Below are positions 54,504 to 62,287 of a stretch of 64,000 nucleotides of DNA, one piece after another. Every line of letters starts with the position of its first letter. Position 1 is the stretch's first letter. A program made the position numbers and the translations under genes. Source of the stretch: Oscillospiraceae bacterium (GTDB lineage: Bacteria; Bacillota; Clostridia; Oscillospirales; Ruminococcaceae); NCBI GenBank assembly GCA_018110925.1, contig JAGAZJ010000020.1:1-64000 (forward strand), written 5' to 3'. The notes under the pieces were generated by a model that was not told the origin of the DNA, did not search any database, and saw only the letters and a program-made list of their open reading frames with translations.

Positions 54504-55421
54504 TCACAGAGTCTGTACAAGACTGTCGGGATATATACCCCTTGCCGTCATGTCTGCGAATGCTGCCTTTACCTCATCGGTATCCTCTTTGAGCGTCATG
54601 CCGTACCACCTGTCGTGTGTGGGCAGTACCTTTATGTTTATCCTGCCCCTCTTTATAAGCTCATCCGCTGCCATTGGCAGGGCATATTCCGCAGTAAGCT
54701 CGTTCTCTGTGCCCGCATTGTCTGAAAGAAATCCCGCAAAGAGCCTTTCAAACTCTTTTATGATGCTCTCGTCAAATCCCCACATATTCATGGACACAAG
54801 GCTCTTTGGGTCGAGTATGACCCTGCTACCGTCAACATATCCGTCAATAATGCCGTCATGGCTTGATACCTTGTATGTTTCCGTAACTCCGGTGAGTATA
54901 CCGCTGTCATTGCTCCGGCACACTCCCCTTGTCACAGTACCGTTGGCGCTGAGAGTATTTTCAAGCACAAATCCGCACATACACTGGTCGTATGGCATAC
55001 GCACCCCCGTAAGGAAGCTGTATGCGCTTTCATATGCGCTTCTGCCGTAATAGTCATCGGCATTGACGATGAGAAACGGCTCGTCTATCAGTTCCTTTGC
55101 GGCGAGCACCGCATGGACGGTCCCCCAGGGCTTCGTTCTGCCATAGGGCACTTCAAAGCCCTCCGGCAAATATTCCATATCCTGAAAACAGTATTCTGTG
55201 GGCATTATCTTTGATATGCGCCTGTCCACAAGCTCCGCAAACTGCTCCTCCATATCCCTTCTTATGATATATACCGCCTTGTCAAAACCTGCCTTCGCCG
55301 CATCATATGCGGAATACTCCATAAGGAGCTCACCGTTTGCGCCCACGGGCGTGAGCTGCTTTATGCCGCCCGAGAAGCGTGAACCCAGCCCTGCGGCAAG
55401 CACAAGAAGTGTAGCTGACAT
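54504..55421 (-). CDS. Sugar-phosphate nucleotidyltransferase-like protein
   Basis: 305 residues from ATG 55421 behind GGGGGATATT. The N-terminal LVLAAGLGSRFSGGIKQL is the nucleotide-binding motif of the NTP_transferase family, with PWGTVHAVLAAKELI and VNADDYYG as the base-binding and metal-binding parts. The C-terminal section is longer than in simple thymidylyltransferases and lacks a left-handed helix. It probably makes or uses an NDP-sugar; the sugar is unknown. It lies between rpmH and the hydrogenase, outside the standard origin set. Confidence 0.82.
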   Translation of the reverse strand: MSATLLVLAAGLGSRFSGGIKQLTPVGANGELLMEYSAYDAAKAGFDKAVYIIRRDMEEQFAELVDRRISKIMPTEYCFQDMEYLPEGFEVPYGRTKPWGTVHAVLAAKELIDEPFLIVNADDYYGRSAYESAYSFLTGVRMPYDQCMCGFVLENTLSANGTVTRGVCRSNDSGILTGVTETYKVSSHDGIIDGYVDGSRVILDPKSLVSMNMWGFDESIIKEFERLFAGFLSDNAGTENELTAEYALPMAADELIKRGRINIKVLPTHDRWYGMTLKEDTDEVKAAFADMTARGIYPDSLVQTL

Positions 55422-55532
55422 AATATCCCCCATTTATCAAAGATATTGTTATTATTATACCCTATCACTGCAATAAATGATAACCGTTAATTGTTTTTAT
55501 CTTATTTTTCTTTACAATTTTTGCCTTAACTG

Positions 55533-57056
55533 TCAAAGTTCAAAATCTTCAAGCAGATAAAGCTCGGAAGCATGATCCGTCTCGGAAGCAAGCTTTTTCT
55601 CCGCCTGCTTCTTGTATTTATCTATGCCTGCGGTCGCCTTGTTCACGGCGCATAGAGTACCCGCACCCGCAACACATCCGCCGGGGCATCCCATGCCCTC
55701 CAGCAGATAGCCGTCATACTTGTGTGCCTTTGCCATCTGCAGCATCTTGCGGCACTCTGACAGACCCTGAGCCGATGTGGTCTTTACCTCTCTGTCGGGA
55801 GCTATCCTGTGTATCTCTTCCGCCACAGCACCTGCAACTCCTCCGCTGACCGCAAAGCCGCGCCCTGCGCCCGTGGCACTGTTGAGAGGCACCTCCTCCG
55901 AAGCGGGGATATTGTCAAGGTCTACTTCCTTTGCGGCAAACATTCCCATGAGCTCCTCAAAGGTCAGAACGAAATCCACATAGCTCCTCACGCTCCTGCG
56001 GCTCGCCTCCAGCTTCTTTGCGGAACAGGGCCCTATAAATGCTATCATGCAGTCGGGGTCGTTTTTCTTTTCAAGCCTTGCCGTAAGTACCATAGGTGTG
56101 AGTGCCATGGATATATTCTTTGCAAGCTCGGGGAACAGCTTCTTTGCCATCACCGACCATGCGGGACAGCAGGATGTTCCCATGAAATCGAGCTTTTCGG
56201 GAACATTCTCTATGAAGTCCTTTGCTTCCTCGACCGTGCAGAGGTCTGCGCCCACCGCCACCTCTGAAACGCTGTCAAAGCCCAGCTGCTTCATGGCATA
56301 TGTGAGCTTTTCGGGGGTGACCTTTGGTCCGAACTGACCGTAGAATGCGGGCGCTACTATCGCAACGACCCTTCTTCCCGTCTTTATGGCGTGGATGAGC
56401 TGGAATATCTGCCCCTTGTCAGCGATAGCACCGAAGGGACAGTTCACAAGGCACATACCGCAGGATACACAGCGGTCATAGTTTATCTTTGCCCTGCCGT
56501 GTTCATCGCTGCCTATGGCATCCATGCCGCAGGCACGGGCACAAGGGCGCTCTACCTTCAGTATCGCTCCGTAGGGGCACACGTCCTTGCATCTGCCGCA
56601 CTTGATGCACTTTTCCTCGTCGATGATGGATTTGCCGTGCCTGATGCTTATAGCGCCCTTTGGACATACCTCCTTGCAGGGATTTTCAAAGCATCCCTGA
56701 CAAACCTCTGTCACATGATAGTGCATAGTGGGGCAGGCGTTGCAGGCAAAGCTGATTATGTTTATGAGGGGAGGATCATAGTATTTCTCTGCGATGGCGC
56801 TCTCATTCACACCTCTCGATACGGGGGCGTGCTCGCTCACATCACGGAGCGGCAGACCCATTGCAAGGCGCAGTCTTTCCTCGACTATCGCCCTTTCAAG
56901 GAATATCGACTCTCTGTGCGCCGCAACATCTCCGGGGCATATCTTGTAGGGCAGATCCTCCATTCTTGAATAATCACCGCCCTCATACGCAAGCCTTGCG
57001 ACCTCGGTGAATACCTTTCTCCTCATATCCGTAACGGATGAATAAATACCTCTCAT
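55533..57056 (-). CDS. Monomeric [FeFe]-hydrogenase, group B type
   Basis: 507 residues. The N-terminal third carries iron-sulphur motifs, including CQGCFENPCKEVCPKGA, CIKCGRCKDVCPYGA and CVSCGMCLVNCPFGA. The H-cluster domain has L1 TSCCPAW near residue 300, L2 GPCSAKK near 352 and L3 EGMGCPGGCVAGAG near 460, complete in all cysteines. [FeFe]-hydrogenases make or oxidise H2; group B is widespread in fermenting Clostridia, and its direction is not settled. No maturation genes (hydE, hydF, hydG) are in the window. Confidence 0.93.
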   Translation of the reverse strand: MRGIYSSVTDMRRKVFTEVARLAYEGGDYSRMEDLPYKICPGDVAAHRESIFLERAIVEERLRLAMGLPLRDVSEHAPVSRGVNESAIAEKYYDPPLINIISFACNACPTMHYHVTEVCQGCFENPCKEVCPKGAISIRHGKSIIDEEKCIKCGRCKDVCPYGAILKVERPCARACGMDAIGSDEHGRAKINYDRCVSCGMCLVNCPFGAIADKGQIFQLIHAIKTGRRVVAIVAPAFYGQFGPKVTPEKLTYAMKQLGFDSVSEVAVGADLCTVEEAKDFIENVPEKLDFMGTSCCPAWSVMAKKLFPELAKNISMALTPMVLTARLEKKNDPDCMIAFIGPCSAKKLEASRRSVRSYVDFVLTFEELMGMFAAKEVDLDNIPASEEVPLNSATGAGRGFAVSGGVAGAVAEEIHRIAPDREVKTTSAQGLSECRKMLQMAKAHKYDGYLLEGMGCPGGCVAGAGTLCAVNKATAGIDKYKKQAEKKLASETDHASELYLLEDFEL

Positions 57057-57654: not shown

Positions 57655-59019
57655 ATGCAGCAAATGAATTCGTTTGACGAAGTTTATGAGCTTGTTCTCG
57701 GGTATATAGAGAAAAAGGCTGACGAGGAGCAGATTTCCAAGGTAGCTTACGATACATGGATAAAAAAGATAAAGCCCGTCAGGATGGAGGGCAACAAGGT
57801 CTACCTGAAAGTAGACAACACCTGGGTGCAGAGTGTCATAAAAGCACAGTATGAGGATCTTCTGAAAGAGGCATTCCTCGGCATAATAGGCTTTGAACCC
57901 GAGATAATATTCATACCGCAGACACAGGAAGCCGAGACCGGTGACGACATATCTGCGGACAATGATGCTGCTCTCAAAAAGGCATACAACGATGCCGAAT
58001 ACAAATATACGTTCGATACGTTCATAGTGGGCAAATCCAATGAATTTACCTACCGTGCGGCTCTTGCTGTGTCCGAAAATCCCGGCTCGGCATATAATCC
58101 GCTGTTCATACACGGCCCATCGGGTCTGGGCAAAACACATCTGATGCAGGCCATAGGCAACAAGGTAAAAAGCGAGAGACCCGATATGAACGTGCTTTAT
58201 GTCACGGGTGAGATATTCACCACCGAGCTTATCGAGGCGATACAGCTCAAGGACCCGATGACATTCAAGAAGAAATACCGCAGTGTGGATATGCTCCTTA
58301 TGGATGATGTACAATTCATAGCAGGCAAGGAATCCACGCAGGAGGAATTTTTCCACACATTCAACGAGCTTAAATCCCTCGGCAAGCAGATAGTCCTCAC
58401 CTCAGACCGCCCCACAAGGGATCTGAGCATACTTGACGAAAGGATAAGAACACGCTTTGAAGAGGGTCTGATAACCGACATAAGCACTCCCGACTTTGAA
58501 ACAAGAGTGGCTATCGTCAAGAGAAAGGCATCTCTTCTCGACCTTGACCTCACGGACGACGTGGTGAACTATGTTGCAACAAGACTCAAATCCAACGTGA
58601 GACAGCTTGAGGGATGCGTGAAAAAGCTGAAAGCATATCAGCACCTCATGAACACATCGCCCACGCTGACACAGGCACAGAGCGCCATAAGCGAGATACT
58701 CAACGAAAACGACAATGCCCCAATAACCGCAGAGAAGATAGTGAATGAAGTCGCAGCGGTGTACGGCGTAAAGGCTGATGATATACGCTCAGAAAAGAGA
58801 TCGAAGCAGATATCCCTTGCCCGCAAGGTATGTGCATATGCCATCAAGGATATCACACCCCTTTCGCTCAAGATGATCGGTGCGGAGCTGGGCAACAAGG
58901 ATCACTCCTCCGTATCCGGATATATAAACGACGTGAAGAAGCTTATGTCTGAAAATTCGGTCACAAAGGACAATGTCGAGGATATTATAAGAAACCTCAA
59001 ATCCCAGGGAAACAAATGA
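57655..59019 (+). CDS. dnaA: Chromosomal replication initiator DnaA
   Basis: 454 residues. Domain I (1-85) recruits helicase; domain III carries Walker A GPSGLGKTHL near residue 160, Walker B LLMDDVQF and sensor II; domain IV ends in LKMIGAELGNKDHSSV, the DnaA signature helix-turn-helix. The usual RDHTTV segment reads KDHSSV here, a small change in the DNA-reading loop worth comparing with the unusual boxes downstream. The start follows GGAGAAAAGG. It heads the plus-strand replication genes. Confidence 0.98.
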   Translation: MQQMNSFDEVYELVLGYIEKKADEEQISKVAYDTWIKKIKPVRMEGNKVYLKVDNTWVQSVIKAQYEDLLKEAFLGIIGFEPEIIFIPQTQEAETGDDISADNDAALKKAYNDAEYKYTFDTFIVGKSNEFTYRAALAVSENPGSAYNPLFIHGPSGLGKTHLMQAIGNKVKSERPDMNVLYVTGEIFTTELIEAIQLKDPMTFKKKYRSVDMLLMDDVQFIAGKESTQEEFFHTFNELKSLGKQIVLTSDRPTRDLSILDERIRTRFEEGLITDISTPDFETRVAIVKRKASLLDLDLTDDVVNYVATRLKSNVRQLEGCVKKLKAYQHLMNTSPTLTQAQSAISEILNENDNAPITAEKIVNEVAAVYGVKADDIRSEKRSKQISLARKVCAYAIKDITPLSLKMIGAELGNKDHSSVSGYINDVKKLMSENSVTKDNVEDIIRNLKSQGNK

Positions 59020-59508
59020 CAGCATAACAAGTATACAAATTGTATTTAAATTTCAATTTTATACTAATAATCATATAATACTTAAAGTTTAAAACATTTT
59101 TTTCAACACGATGTTGAAAAATGTGTTAGAAAGTTTTGCAGATAGAAATTATAGTTACAAAACAATTACAAGCGGTAAAAATTTGAAAAATACAGAGTGT
59201 ATATTATTACAAATCAACACACTTCAAACATTTATGTGTTGAAAGTGGGATTTTCACAACATTTTTCTAACTTTCAACCCACATTATTCCAACATATCAA
59301 CATACCGGCAGACATTCCGGACATATATCAAAAACCGCAACATTTTTTCATCATGCTGTTGTTTGAAATTTTTTTCAGTCGTTAAGGGGTCTGCGGCACT
59401 TTTCAAAACTTTCAACACTACAACTACAATAACAAATAACTACGTTAAGTTATGTTTTTTAAAACACAGCCTTGTGTGGAATATCAAACTGAAAGATCGG
59501 TGAGAAAA
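59020..59508. other. Probable oriC with TTTTCAACA boxes
   Basis: 489 AT-rich bases between dnaA and dnaN with no gene. A head-to-head pair of TTTTCAACA boxes (59100-59108 and 59112-59120) is followed by near copies at 59237-59245, 59251-59259, 59271-59279 and 59409-59417. Long A/T tracts nearby could be the unwinding element. The canonical TTATCCACA box was not found here. Position and gene context make an origin likely. Confidence 0.72.
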
Positions 59509-60618
59509 ATGATATTTAAATGCAAACAGAAAGAACTGAATGAAACACTCAATAATGTGACAAGGGCAGTGCCCCAGAAATCACCAATGCAGGCACTTGA
59601 AGGTGTCAAGATGTATATCAACAACAACGACCTGGAGCTGACAGGCTATGATCTTGAGATAGGCATCAAGACCACCATAAACGTAAAGTCTGAGGATCAC
59701 GGAGAATTCGTGGTCAATGCAAGGATATTCTCGGATATAATAAGAAAGATGCCCGACGATGAGATATCGGTAGAGGTGGATGAAAAGCTGAAAGTCACCA
59801 TCAAGGGACAGAAGGCGGAGTATAACATACTCGCCCTCACGGCTGACGACTACCCATCCATACCCGATATAGACAAGTCGGATTTCTTTGAGTTCCCCCA
59901 GCCTGTGATAAAGAATATGATAAATCAGACCATATTCGCTGTTTCACAGAATGACTCAAAGCCCATACTCAAGGGCGAGCTTTTCGATATAGAGAACGGG
60001 CTTTTCACGCTTGTTGCCATAGACGGTTTCCGCCTTGCGATAAGACGTGAGAAGATAGACACTGACGACAGGTTCAACTTCGTTGTCAAGGCGAAGGCCC
60101 TCTCTGAGCTCACAAAGCTGCTCAGCGACAATGAGGACTCAAAGGTGAACGTGTATGTCACCAGAAAGCACGTTGTATTCGACCTCAACGGCTATATGCT
60201 CATAACAAGGCTCTTAGAGGGCGAATTCCACAACTACCGCGGCTCTGTGCCCGCAAATCACAATACCGAGGTAATCATCAACACCCGTGATGTCACAGAT
60301 ATGCTGGAAAGATGTATGCTCATCATAGTCGAGCATACAAAGGCGGCTGTAAGATGCGTTATCGGCAACGGTGAGATCAAGGTGTCATGTTCCACATCCC
60401 TCGGTAATTTCTCGGATTCCTGCTCTGCCGACATAACAGGCGACATGACTGAGATAGGATTTAACTGCAAGTACTTCATCGAGGCTCTCAAAGCAACAGA
60501 GTCCGACAAGGTGAAGCTGCAGCTGGGCGGCAATCTTGCCCCGATGAAGATAGTTCCTCTCGACGGCGATGACTACACCTTCCTGCTCCTTCCCGTAAGG
60601 CTCAAAAATGCAGGCTGA
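59509..60618 (+). CDS. dnaN: DNA polymerase III beta sliding clamp
   Basis: 369 residues from ATG 59509, chosen because GGTGAGAAAA precedes it and the protein then starts MIFKCKQKEL as in the family. Three repeated clamp domains give the ring. LLPVRL near the C-terminus is the usual end. It tethers the polymerase to DNA. An in-frame ATG 57 bases upstream is rejected. Confidence 0.97.
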   Translation: MIFKCKQKELNETLNNVTRAVPQKSPMQALEGVKMYINNNDLELTGYDLEIGIKTTINVKSEDHGEFVVNARIFSDIIRKMPDDEISVEVDEKLKVTIKGQKAEYNILALTADDYPSIPDIDKSDFFEFPQPVIKNMINQTIFAVSQNDSKPILKGELFDIENGLFTLVAIDGFRLAIRREKIDTDDRFNFVVKAKALSELTKLLSDNEDSKVNVYVTRKHVVFDLNGYMLITRLLEGEFHNYRGSVPANHNTEVIINTRDVTDMLERCMLIIVEHTKAAVRCVIGNGEIKVSCSTSLGNFSDSCSADITGDMTEIGFNCKYFIEALKATESDKVKLQLGGNLAPMKIVPLDGDDYTFLLLPVRLKNAG

Positions 60619-62016: not shown

Positions 62017-62280
62017 ATGTATATCCATCTCGGTTCCGACACGGTGATAAGAGACAGTGACCTTATAGGTATTTTTGATATTGAAACATCGGTGAATGCG
62101 GACACAAGAGAATATCTCGCCGCATCGGGAAGAAGAAAAACTGCGGTATATGTATCCTATGATATGCCAAAGGCATATGTGACTGCTATCACGGACGGCA
62201 GGGAGAGGGTATATATCACGAATGTATCCCCTGCCACGCTGAAAAAGAGAACGGCAGATATCAACACATTCAACACATGA
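62017..62280 (+). CDS. remB: DUF370 protein RemB/YaaB
   Basis: 87 residues starting MYIHLGSDTVI, with the family elements IGIFDIETSV and RKTAVYVSYDMPKAYVTAI. In B. subtilis it is remB, linked to matrix regulation, and lies between recF and gyrB as here. DNA binding is inferred from the related RemA. Confidence 0.9.
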   Translation: MYIHLGSDTVIRDSDLIGIFDIETSVNADTREYLAASGRRKTAVYVSYDMPKAYVTAITDGRERVYITNVSPATLKKRTADINTFNT

Positions 62281-62287
62281 TGTTGAA
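62269..62287. promoter_or_regulatory. Inverted TTCAACA pair before gyrB
   Basis: TTCAACA-CATGA-TGTTGAA, spanning the remB stop and the gap before gyrB. It repeats the palindromic box pair of the putative oriC with a longer spacer. Confidence 0.5.

What the first reader, a model, noticed from the sequence alone, without database searches (positions are those of the whole stretch)
59020..59508. Putative oriC uses TTTTCAACA rather than TTATCCACA boxes
The dnaA-dnaN gap is AT-rich and holds at least two exact and four near copies of TTTTCAACA, including a head-to-head pair three bases apart, while the canonical box is absent by eye. A related inverted pair TTCAACA-N5-TGTTGAA occurs before gyrB. 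DnaA here reads KDHSSV where the common signature is RDHTTV. Together these suggest a shifted DnaA-box preference. The box reading is seen directly; the protein link is inference.
Basis: partly seen in the sequence, partly recalled or inferred. Interest (0 to 1): 0.72.

Follow-up and report, generated by a model that had tools for sequence, protein, structure and literature searches.

The report
Replication origin with shifted DnaA boxes
This is the chromosome's replication start site in a Ruminococcus-like gut bacterium; its initiator protein appears to read a slightly altered DNA word, and beside the main pair of these words lies a conserved repeat that resembles a landing site for a cell-wall regulator, hinting that envelope state may help decide when the chromosome is copied.

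Summary
The 489-bp dnaA-dnaN gap (59020-59508) holds 2 exact and 4 one-mismatch TTTTCAACA (expected 0.07 exact, 1.07 for all six), with a head-to-head pair 3 bp apart and no TTATCCACA. The contig's cumulative GC-skew minimum is at 59443. In 15 same-genus gaps, window excluded, the top 9-mer is TTTTCAACA (51 against 1.03 expected).

The shift is not peculiar to this strain: most of the order read here uses TTTTC(A/C)ACA, and this genus is the A extreme. D433N does go with A at box position 6, but tree-based support is only suggestive. The gyrB pair is not conserved (1 of 13 relatives).

New: a direct repeat RTTACAA-N4-RTTACAA (window 59154-59171) is in 12 of 16 genus gaps and 2 of 220 others, with a pair starting 53-57 bp after a DnaA box in all 12. 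On the other strand it reads TGTAAY-N5-TGTAAY, the published WalR consensus, and it also lies before murA, mraZ and IseA-like genes in the genus. No binding was tested.

The parts
59020..59508 (.). oriC: AT-rich dnaA-dnaN gap
   Evidence: gene order, cumulative GC-skew minimum 59443, densest box cluster of contig C16
59100..59108 (+). DnaA box TTTTCAACA, left member of the head-to-head pair
   Evidence: TTTTCAACA-N3-TGTTGAAA is identical in the three closest species
59112..59120 (-). DnaA box TTTTCAACA, right member of the head-to-head pair (3-bp spacer)
   Evidence: its outermost base differs between the three species
59237..59245 (-). DnaA box CTTTCAACA
   Evidence: matrix built from relatives only, score 14.4
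59409..59417 (+). DnaA box CTTTCAACA
   Evidence: score 14.4
59271..59279 (+). weak DnaA-box match CTTTCAACC
   Evidence: score 10.2
59345..59353 (+). weak DnaA-box match TTTTCATCA
   Evidence: score 10.4
59400..59408 (+). weak DnaA-box match TTTTCAAAA
   Evidence: score 12.9
59154..59171 (.). direct repeat GTTACAA-N4-ATTACAA; on the minus strand TGTAAY-N5-TGTAAY (59154-59170), WalR/MtrA-like operator candidate
   Evidence: TTACAA starts 55 bp after the start of box 59100
57655..59019 (+). dnaA
   Evidence: NCBIfam TIGR00362, 460.7 bits, cut-off 343.9
58897..58920 (+). KDHSSVSG, start of DnaA helix 5 (E. coli 432-439)
59509..60618 (+). dnaN
   Evidence: NCBIfam TIGR00663, 280.4 bits, cut-off 137.65
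62269..62287 (.). TTCAACA-N5-TGTTGAA before gyrB (gyrB starts 62321): present, not conserved

Best explanation
The gap is oriC. Its DnaA boxes follow YTTTCAACA, an A6 variant of TTWTNCACA. The core is a head-to-head pair 3 bp apart that most likely binds two DnaA molecules; further single boxes lie to the right; DnaA assembled there opens AT-rich DNA of the gap (shown: sequence, enrichment, conservation, skew; inferred: binding and opening). The box is a lineage variant: in most of this order position 3 is T and position 6 is A or C; in the window's genus position 6 is almost always A. A second conserved part belongs to the same module: a direct repeat RTTACAA-N4-RTTACAA starting 53-57 bp after a box start. 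It is most likely (about 0.5) a double-stranded operator for an OmpR-family response regulator of the WalR/MtrA kind, which would tie initiation, or dnaN expression, to envelope state. The confidence below is for the origin and box part.
For: Enrichment; relatives' top 9-mer 51 against 1.03 in 14 of 15 gaps; skew minimum 59443; densest cluster of C16, 7 sites against a mean of 0.27 per 500 bp; head-to-head pairs with a 3-bp spacer in 30 of 238 gaps, other spacers 0-8 in at most 4; E. coli DnaA favours box pairs 2-3 bp apart (PMC11317965, passages); exact TTWTNAACA 72 against TTWTNCACA 5 in the 16 genus gaps. Repeat: TTACAA pairs at 11 bp 18 and at 10 bp 8 in 16 genus gaps against 0.02 and 0.04 expected; 12 of 12 at 53-57 bp from a box.
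Against: No binding data. The genome is 69% complete and in contigs. A denser TTCAACA array (9 matrix hits per 500 bp) lies on C21, away from any skew switch, so the word is not confined to oriC. L089 of the genus has one TTATCCACA. In the PMC11317965 search the double box was built in tandem, not head-to-head. The repeat is not a 10/11-bp TTACAA pair in 4 of 16 genus gaps (L088, cut at 118 bp, L094, L097, L099).
Confidence: 0.87

Rival explanations
1. The words are binding sites of another protein (for instance a dnaN or dnaA repressor), not DnaA boxes.
For: TTCAACA arrays also occur away from oriC.
Against: One base from TTWTNCACA, at the place where relatives carry canonical boxes; fixed pair spacing in 30 of 238 gaps; enrichment follows the lineage.
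Confidence: 0.05
2. AT-rich DNA gives such words by chance.
For: Gap GC 0.29; A6 share rises with falling GC (r -0.55 over 142 gaps lacking P423 and H439).
Against: Resampling, AT-matched windows of C16/C21, conservation.
Confidence: 0.02
3. D433N rewrote the code: D433 favours C6, N433 favours A6, and this genus has A6 because its ancestor carried N433.
For: Exact TTWTNxACA sites: D433 (196 DnaAs) 360 A6, 333 C6; N433 (32) 100 and 9; H433 (8) 2 and 10. Odds ratio 9.8 across GC bins, 7.1 over 10 clade/sister strata (which mends one wrong cell). All 12 all-N clades have more A6 than C6.
Against: The window has D433 and the same box. On the tree only 7 supported pairs exist: same way 2.4, other way 0.0, no difference 4.6, not significant. 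Two of 12 N clades (L111; the L001 group) have a slightly lower A6 share than their sisters. Sites in one gap are not independent, and one sister (L124) serves two strata. PMC8235120 (passage) assigns D433 and L438 to position 7, not 6.
Confidence: 0.3
4. The RTTACAA repeat is part of the unwinding element or a site for DnaA, DnaD or another replication protein rather than an operator of an envelope regulator.
For: Locked to the box pair, not to dnaN. The C23 locus has a TTCAACA array in a DnaD-like gene followed by 10-bp GTTACAA repeats.
Against: The same 10/11-bp repeat occurs 146 times against 32 backward controls in 20 genus genomes, mostly by gene starts, several for envelope genes.
Confidence: 0.25
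5. The repeat is an operator, but only of the dnaN promoter, with no role in initiation.
For: It lies upstream of dnaN; MtrA at oriC lowers dnaN expression (PMC6265350, passage).
Against: Distance to dnaN varies (309-584 bp, SD 88), distance to the box hardly (SD 4).
Confidence: 0.2

Closest known systems
Firmicute dnaA-dnaN origins with TTWTNCACA boxes (C. difficile, PMC7561715, passage)
   Same: Place, gene order, AT-richness, clustered 9-mers
   Different: Position 6 is A; P423 and H439 of DnaA are replaced (K and G here)
Proposed mollicute DnaA-box motif TT(T/A)TCAACA (PMC3322544, passage)
   Same: Same word, A at position 6
   Different: Mollicutes; that paper itself doubts that the motif covers the box
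Epsilonproteobacterial DnaA boxes (PMC5043019, section read)
   Same: Lineage-specific box with changed helix-5 residues (K432, S435, S438)
   Different: Position 5 is T there; C6 kept
WalR (YycF) box TGTWAH-N5-TGTWAH (PMC9210968, passage) and WalR sites at the S. aureus dnaA promoter (PMC10746227, passages)
   Same: Sequence and spacing; regulon with envelope genes
   Different: Here inside the dnaA-dnaN gap at fixed distance from a DnaA-box pair; the regulator is not identified
MtrA sites in mycobacterial oriC (PMC6265350, passages)
   Same: Direct repeat separated by 4 bases, envelope-related response regulator, within the origin
   Different: Another phylum and a more degenerate motif

Membership tests
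Bacterial oriC (dnaA-dnaN type) | dnaA-dnaN-recF-gyrB order with divergent rnpA/yidC side | tested here: met
Bacterial oriC (dnaA-dnaN type) | GC-skew switch | tested here: met
   minimum at 59443 on the 84,000 bases read of one contig; no closed chromosome was examined
Bacterial oriC (dnaA-dnaN type) | replication starts here | not testable with these tools
   needs read depth or an experiment
Canonical DnaA box TTWTNCACA | C at position 6 | tested here: not met
   0 of the exact sites in the gap; genus 72 A6 to 5 C6
Canonical DnaA box TTWTNCACA | TTWT at 1-4 and ACA at 7-9 | tested here: met
   both exact boxes
Canonical DnaA box TTWTNCACA | bound by DnaA | not testable with these tools
   -
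WalR (YycF) operator | TGTWAH-N5-TGTWAH | tested here: met
   39 against 0.25 expected in 16 genus gaps; at least one in 15 of 16
WalR (YycF) operator | cell-envelope regulon | tested here: inconclusive
   29 genes scanned, no random-gene control; IseA matches all under Pfam's cut-off
WalR (YycF) operator | a WalR protein in the genome | tested here: inconclusive
   best of 8 regulators scanned (of 11) is L358, 253 bits on NF040534, cut-off 340; MtrA model 249.8, cut-off 300
WalR (YycF) operator | binding by the regulator | not testable with these tools
BUS / DnaA-trio unwinding system (PMC8287927, passages) | three or more NAN trios within 16 bp of a box | not tested
   looked at by eye only; chance matches are common in AT-rich DNA

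The most novel reading that the evidence does not exclude
In this genus an envelope-sensing response regulator of the WalR/MtrA kind sits inside the initiation complex: its operator (RTTACAA-N4-RTTACAA) is held about five helical turns from a head-to-head DnaA-box pair, so that cell-wall status gates replication start directly at oriC. At the same time the DnaA box has drifted to TTTTCAACA together with DnaA helix-5 residues (N433, or polar residues at 438), a natural record of an initiator and its site changing together.
Probability: 0.38. Interest if true: 0.78.

Novelty: new variant of a known kind. Interest (0 to 1): 0.6.

Why it matters
DnaA boxes are used to predict origins; a search for TTATCCACA would miss this one, and only 12 of 149 gaps whose DnaA lacks P423 and H439 hold an exact TTATCCACA, against 31 of 48 with both residues. 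The order shows a graded shift with many DnaA variants, so the DnaA-box code could be tested by single-residue swaps. If the repeat is a WalR/MtrA-type operator, envelope state would be wired straight into the origin of a gut commensal, a link seen in the papers read here only at the S. aureus dnaA promoter and at mycobacterial oriC.

Tried and rejected
Rejected: composition artefact; K432/KDHSSV as the cause; the gyrB inverted pair as a conserved part; the C21 array as the true origin (no skew switch there in the 100 kb read; in the 6.5 kb around it no replication gene seen by eye in the translations).

Tried without a clear result: whether tandem TTYCMACA arrays mark mobile replicons whose repeats copy the host's box. 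The pattern is in 3 of 394 genomes and 28 viral loci; none of the 28 held a relative of the C23 DnaD-like protein by tblastn, and the hosts are unknown. The tree tests of N433, K432, A435, P423 and H439 had too few supported pairs for significance (part of the output was cut). The crystal structure paper of the DnaA-box complex (Fujikawa 2003) is not held, so residue-base contacts rest on secondary passages.

Mended: the gyrB query was translated in the wrong frame and one stratum cell (30 in place of 28) was mistyped; one search repeats both. The gyrB result is unchanged (1 of 13) and the odds ratio moved from 7.0 to 7.1.

Rows dropped before counts: one search dropped 5 duplicate DnaAs, and its printed table keeps gaps with at least 3 sites; one search dropped 7 duplicates and 9 loci without dnaA and left out gaps under 100 bp (2 of 238); in 11 of its 236 gaps dnaN was not found and up to 600 bp after dnaA was used.

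Literature searches: TTTTCAACA with DnaA, 1 paper; TTTTCCACA with DnaA, 11, listing only apart from passages of PMC5835720; DnaA box with Ruminococcus/Faecalibacterium/oriC, 8 papers, none of the 7 listed mentions a DnaA box; DnaA box with Oscillospir/Ruminococcaceae, 3,846 by a loose rule, none of the 20 listed holds both subjects; WalR with DNA replication, dnaA and oriC, 5. No paper describing this box or this repeat in this group was seen in those listings.

Full report
What is there. The finding lies in the 489-bp gap between dnaA (57655-59019) and dnaN (59509-60618) on contig C16 of a 1.67-Mb draft genome. The nearest named relatives are Oscillospiraceae and Ruminococcus MAGs. First-order Markov resamplings of the gap give 0.07 exact and 1.07 within one mismatch; 2 and 0 of 500 reach the observed numbers. 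TTATCCACA does not occur in the window.

It is the origin. rnpA, yidC and jag point left, dnaA, dnaN, recF and gyrB right. The cumulative GC skew of the 84,000 bases read of C16 is lowest at 59443. A weight matrix built only from the gaps of 15 same-genus genomes scores seven sites in the window's gap, the densest 500 bp of that contig (mean 0.27). Without the window, the most over-represented 9-mer of those 15 gaps is TTTTCAACA: 51 copies against 1.03 expected, in 14 of 15 (the other is cut at 118 bp). In the draft genome TTTTCAACA occurs 44 times against 9 for the backward pattern; TTTTCCACA and TTATCCACA occur 25 and 19 times against 13 each. TTTTCAACA-N3-TGTTGAAA is identical in the three closest species, while the spacer and the outermost base vary. 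Head-to-head cores with exactly 3 bp between them occur in 30 of 238 gaps (12 of the 16 genus gaps), other spacers from 0 to 8 in at most 4. E. coli DnaA favours pairs 2 or 3 bp apart (PMC11317965, abstract and passages), although that search built the pair in tandem.

How far the shift reaches. T at position 3 is within the TTWTNCACA consensus quoted for Firmicutes (PMC7561715), and TTTTCCACA is a bound E. coli box (PMC5835720, passage); A at position 6 is outside. Over 236 gaps, DnaAs with P423 and H439 (48) sit with TTAT 99 to TTTT 40, DnaAs lacking both (149) with 60 to 494. Exact TTATCCACA is in 31 of those 48 gaps and 12 of those 149. So T at position 3 marks most of the order read here, and position 6 is A or C there, A more often in AT-rich gaps (r -0.55 over 142 gaps). 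The window's genus is the A6 extreme: 72 A6 to 5 C6 in 16 gaps. A6 is not without precedent: TT(T/A)TCAACA was proposed for mollicutes, with doubts, in PMC3322544.

The protein link. On a tree of domain III columns K432 shows no link with the box. Residue 433 does: with D, 360 A6 and 333 C6 sites; with N, 100 and 9; with H, 2 and 10. The N/D contrast holds in GC bins (odds ratio 9.8) and over ten clade/sister strata (7.1), and all 12 all-N clades are A6-rich. I do not call this shown. Sites in a gap are not independent; the supported independent pairs are too few for significance; two N clades have a slightly lower A6 share than their sisters; one sister serves two strata; and PMC8235120 assigns D433 to position 7 (passage). 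The window itself has D433, and its genus moves between N and D with the box unchanged. For this genome residues 438-439 (S, G), or history, may matter more; that is inference.

A second origin element. The word list of the genus gaps also brought up TTGTAAC. Positions showed a direct repeat RTTACAA-N4-RTTACAA, sometimes with a third copy one turn on. In the window it is GTTACAA-AACA-ATTACAA at 59154-59171. Same-strand TTACAA pairs at 11 bp occur 18 times and at 10 bp 8 times in 16 genus gaps, against 0.02 and 0.04 expected. A 10/11-bp pair is in 12 of 16 genus gaps and 2 of 220 others. In 10 of the 12 a pair starts 53-57 bp after a box start when each repeat cluster is taken at its first copy (random placement: 0.51); in the other two (L096, L101) the first pair starts at 46 bp and the second at 57 bp, one turn on. 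For the pairs taken, the distance to the box has an SD of 4 bp, the distance to dnaN 88 bp. So the repeat goes with the box pair rather than with dnaN.

What the repeat may be. On the other strand it reads TGTAAY-N5-TGTAAY. The B. subtilis WalR consensus is TGTWAH-N5-TGTWAH (quoted in PMC9210968, passage). That published pattern occurs 39 times in the genus gaps against 0.25 expected, at least once in 15 of 16, and 9 times against 2.33 in the 220 others. TTACAA-N4/5-TTACAA occurs 146 times in 20 genus genomes against 32 for the backward control (sums are mine), 4 against 0 in the window's own genome. I read 50 of these places (30 loci, 20; 4 are origins and some overlap) and scanned 29 neighbouring genes; 25 start within 350 bp of a site. 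Found: murA (L338, NCBIfam above cut-off; L372, same Pfam family), mraZ, four lipoproteins in four genomes with weak IseA endopeptidase-inhibitor matches (E 6.5e-5 to 1.2e-3, all under Pfam's cut-off), SecD, PrsW, G5 and Ig-like secreted proteins, but also an RsmD-like methyltransferase, RNA polymerase beta and HPr kinase. There was no random-gene control. iseA is a WalR target in B. subtilis (PMC7299342, passages). WalR acts on the dnaA promoter in S. aureus (PMC10746227, passages), and MtrA binds oriC in mycobacteria through a direct repeat separated by four bases (PMC6265350, passages). The genome has 11 OmpR-family regulators; of the 8 scanned the one at C3:90355 (L358) scores best on the YycF model, 253 bits under a cut-off of 340, with MtrA next at 249.8. 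The identity is therefore a hypothesis; a dnaN-only operator or an unwinding element remain open.

Mechanism proposed. DnaA binds the head-to-head pair and the single boxes and opens AT-rich DNA of the gap (inferred from known origins). A WalR/MtrA-like regulator bound about five turns to the right would touch or exclude DnaA and so make initiation follow envelope state (inferred).

Limits. Sequence only; a partial genome; a quick tree with many weak branches; relatives mostly unnamed; gap ends set by tblastn, and in 11 of 236 gaps dnaN was not found.

Noticed in passing
L081:3140-3320 (own genome C21:47139-47319): A dense TTYCAACA array (12 units in 630 bp, none with C6) beside a TetR-type gene; the densest cluster of the word in the 184 kb read of this genome, possibly a DnaA-titrating site.
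   Followed up: partly
L082:2500-3325 (own genome C23): A DnaD-like helicase-loader gene (PHROG 8489, E 5.8e-53) whose tail codes TTTCAACAC repeats, followed by GTTACAA repeats at 10 bp: both oriC words at what may be another replicon's origin.
   Followed up: partly
L286:1500-1900 (G426:C2:34780-35176): Fourteen TTYCMACA units (4 A6, 10 C6) in 630 bp with no dnaA or dnaN in the 3 kb read: perhaps an origin away from dnaA in that family.
   Followed up: no
window 54504-57056: A nucleotidyltransferase-like gene and an [FeFe] hydrogenase (TIGR04105, 616.8 bits) lie between the rnpA side and dnaA.
   Followed up: no
L352:922-1476 and the like places in L339, L341, L376: A TTACAA-N5-TTACAA site stands right before the rsmD-coaD genes in four genus genomes.
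   Followed up: no
dnaN side of the gaps of L001, L089, L090, L091, L094, L101: TTGTAAT copies 31-32 bp apart (three helical turns), opposite in orientation to the repeat near the box pair.
   Followed up: no
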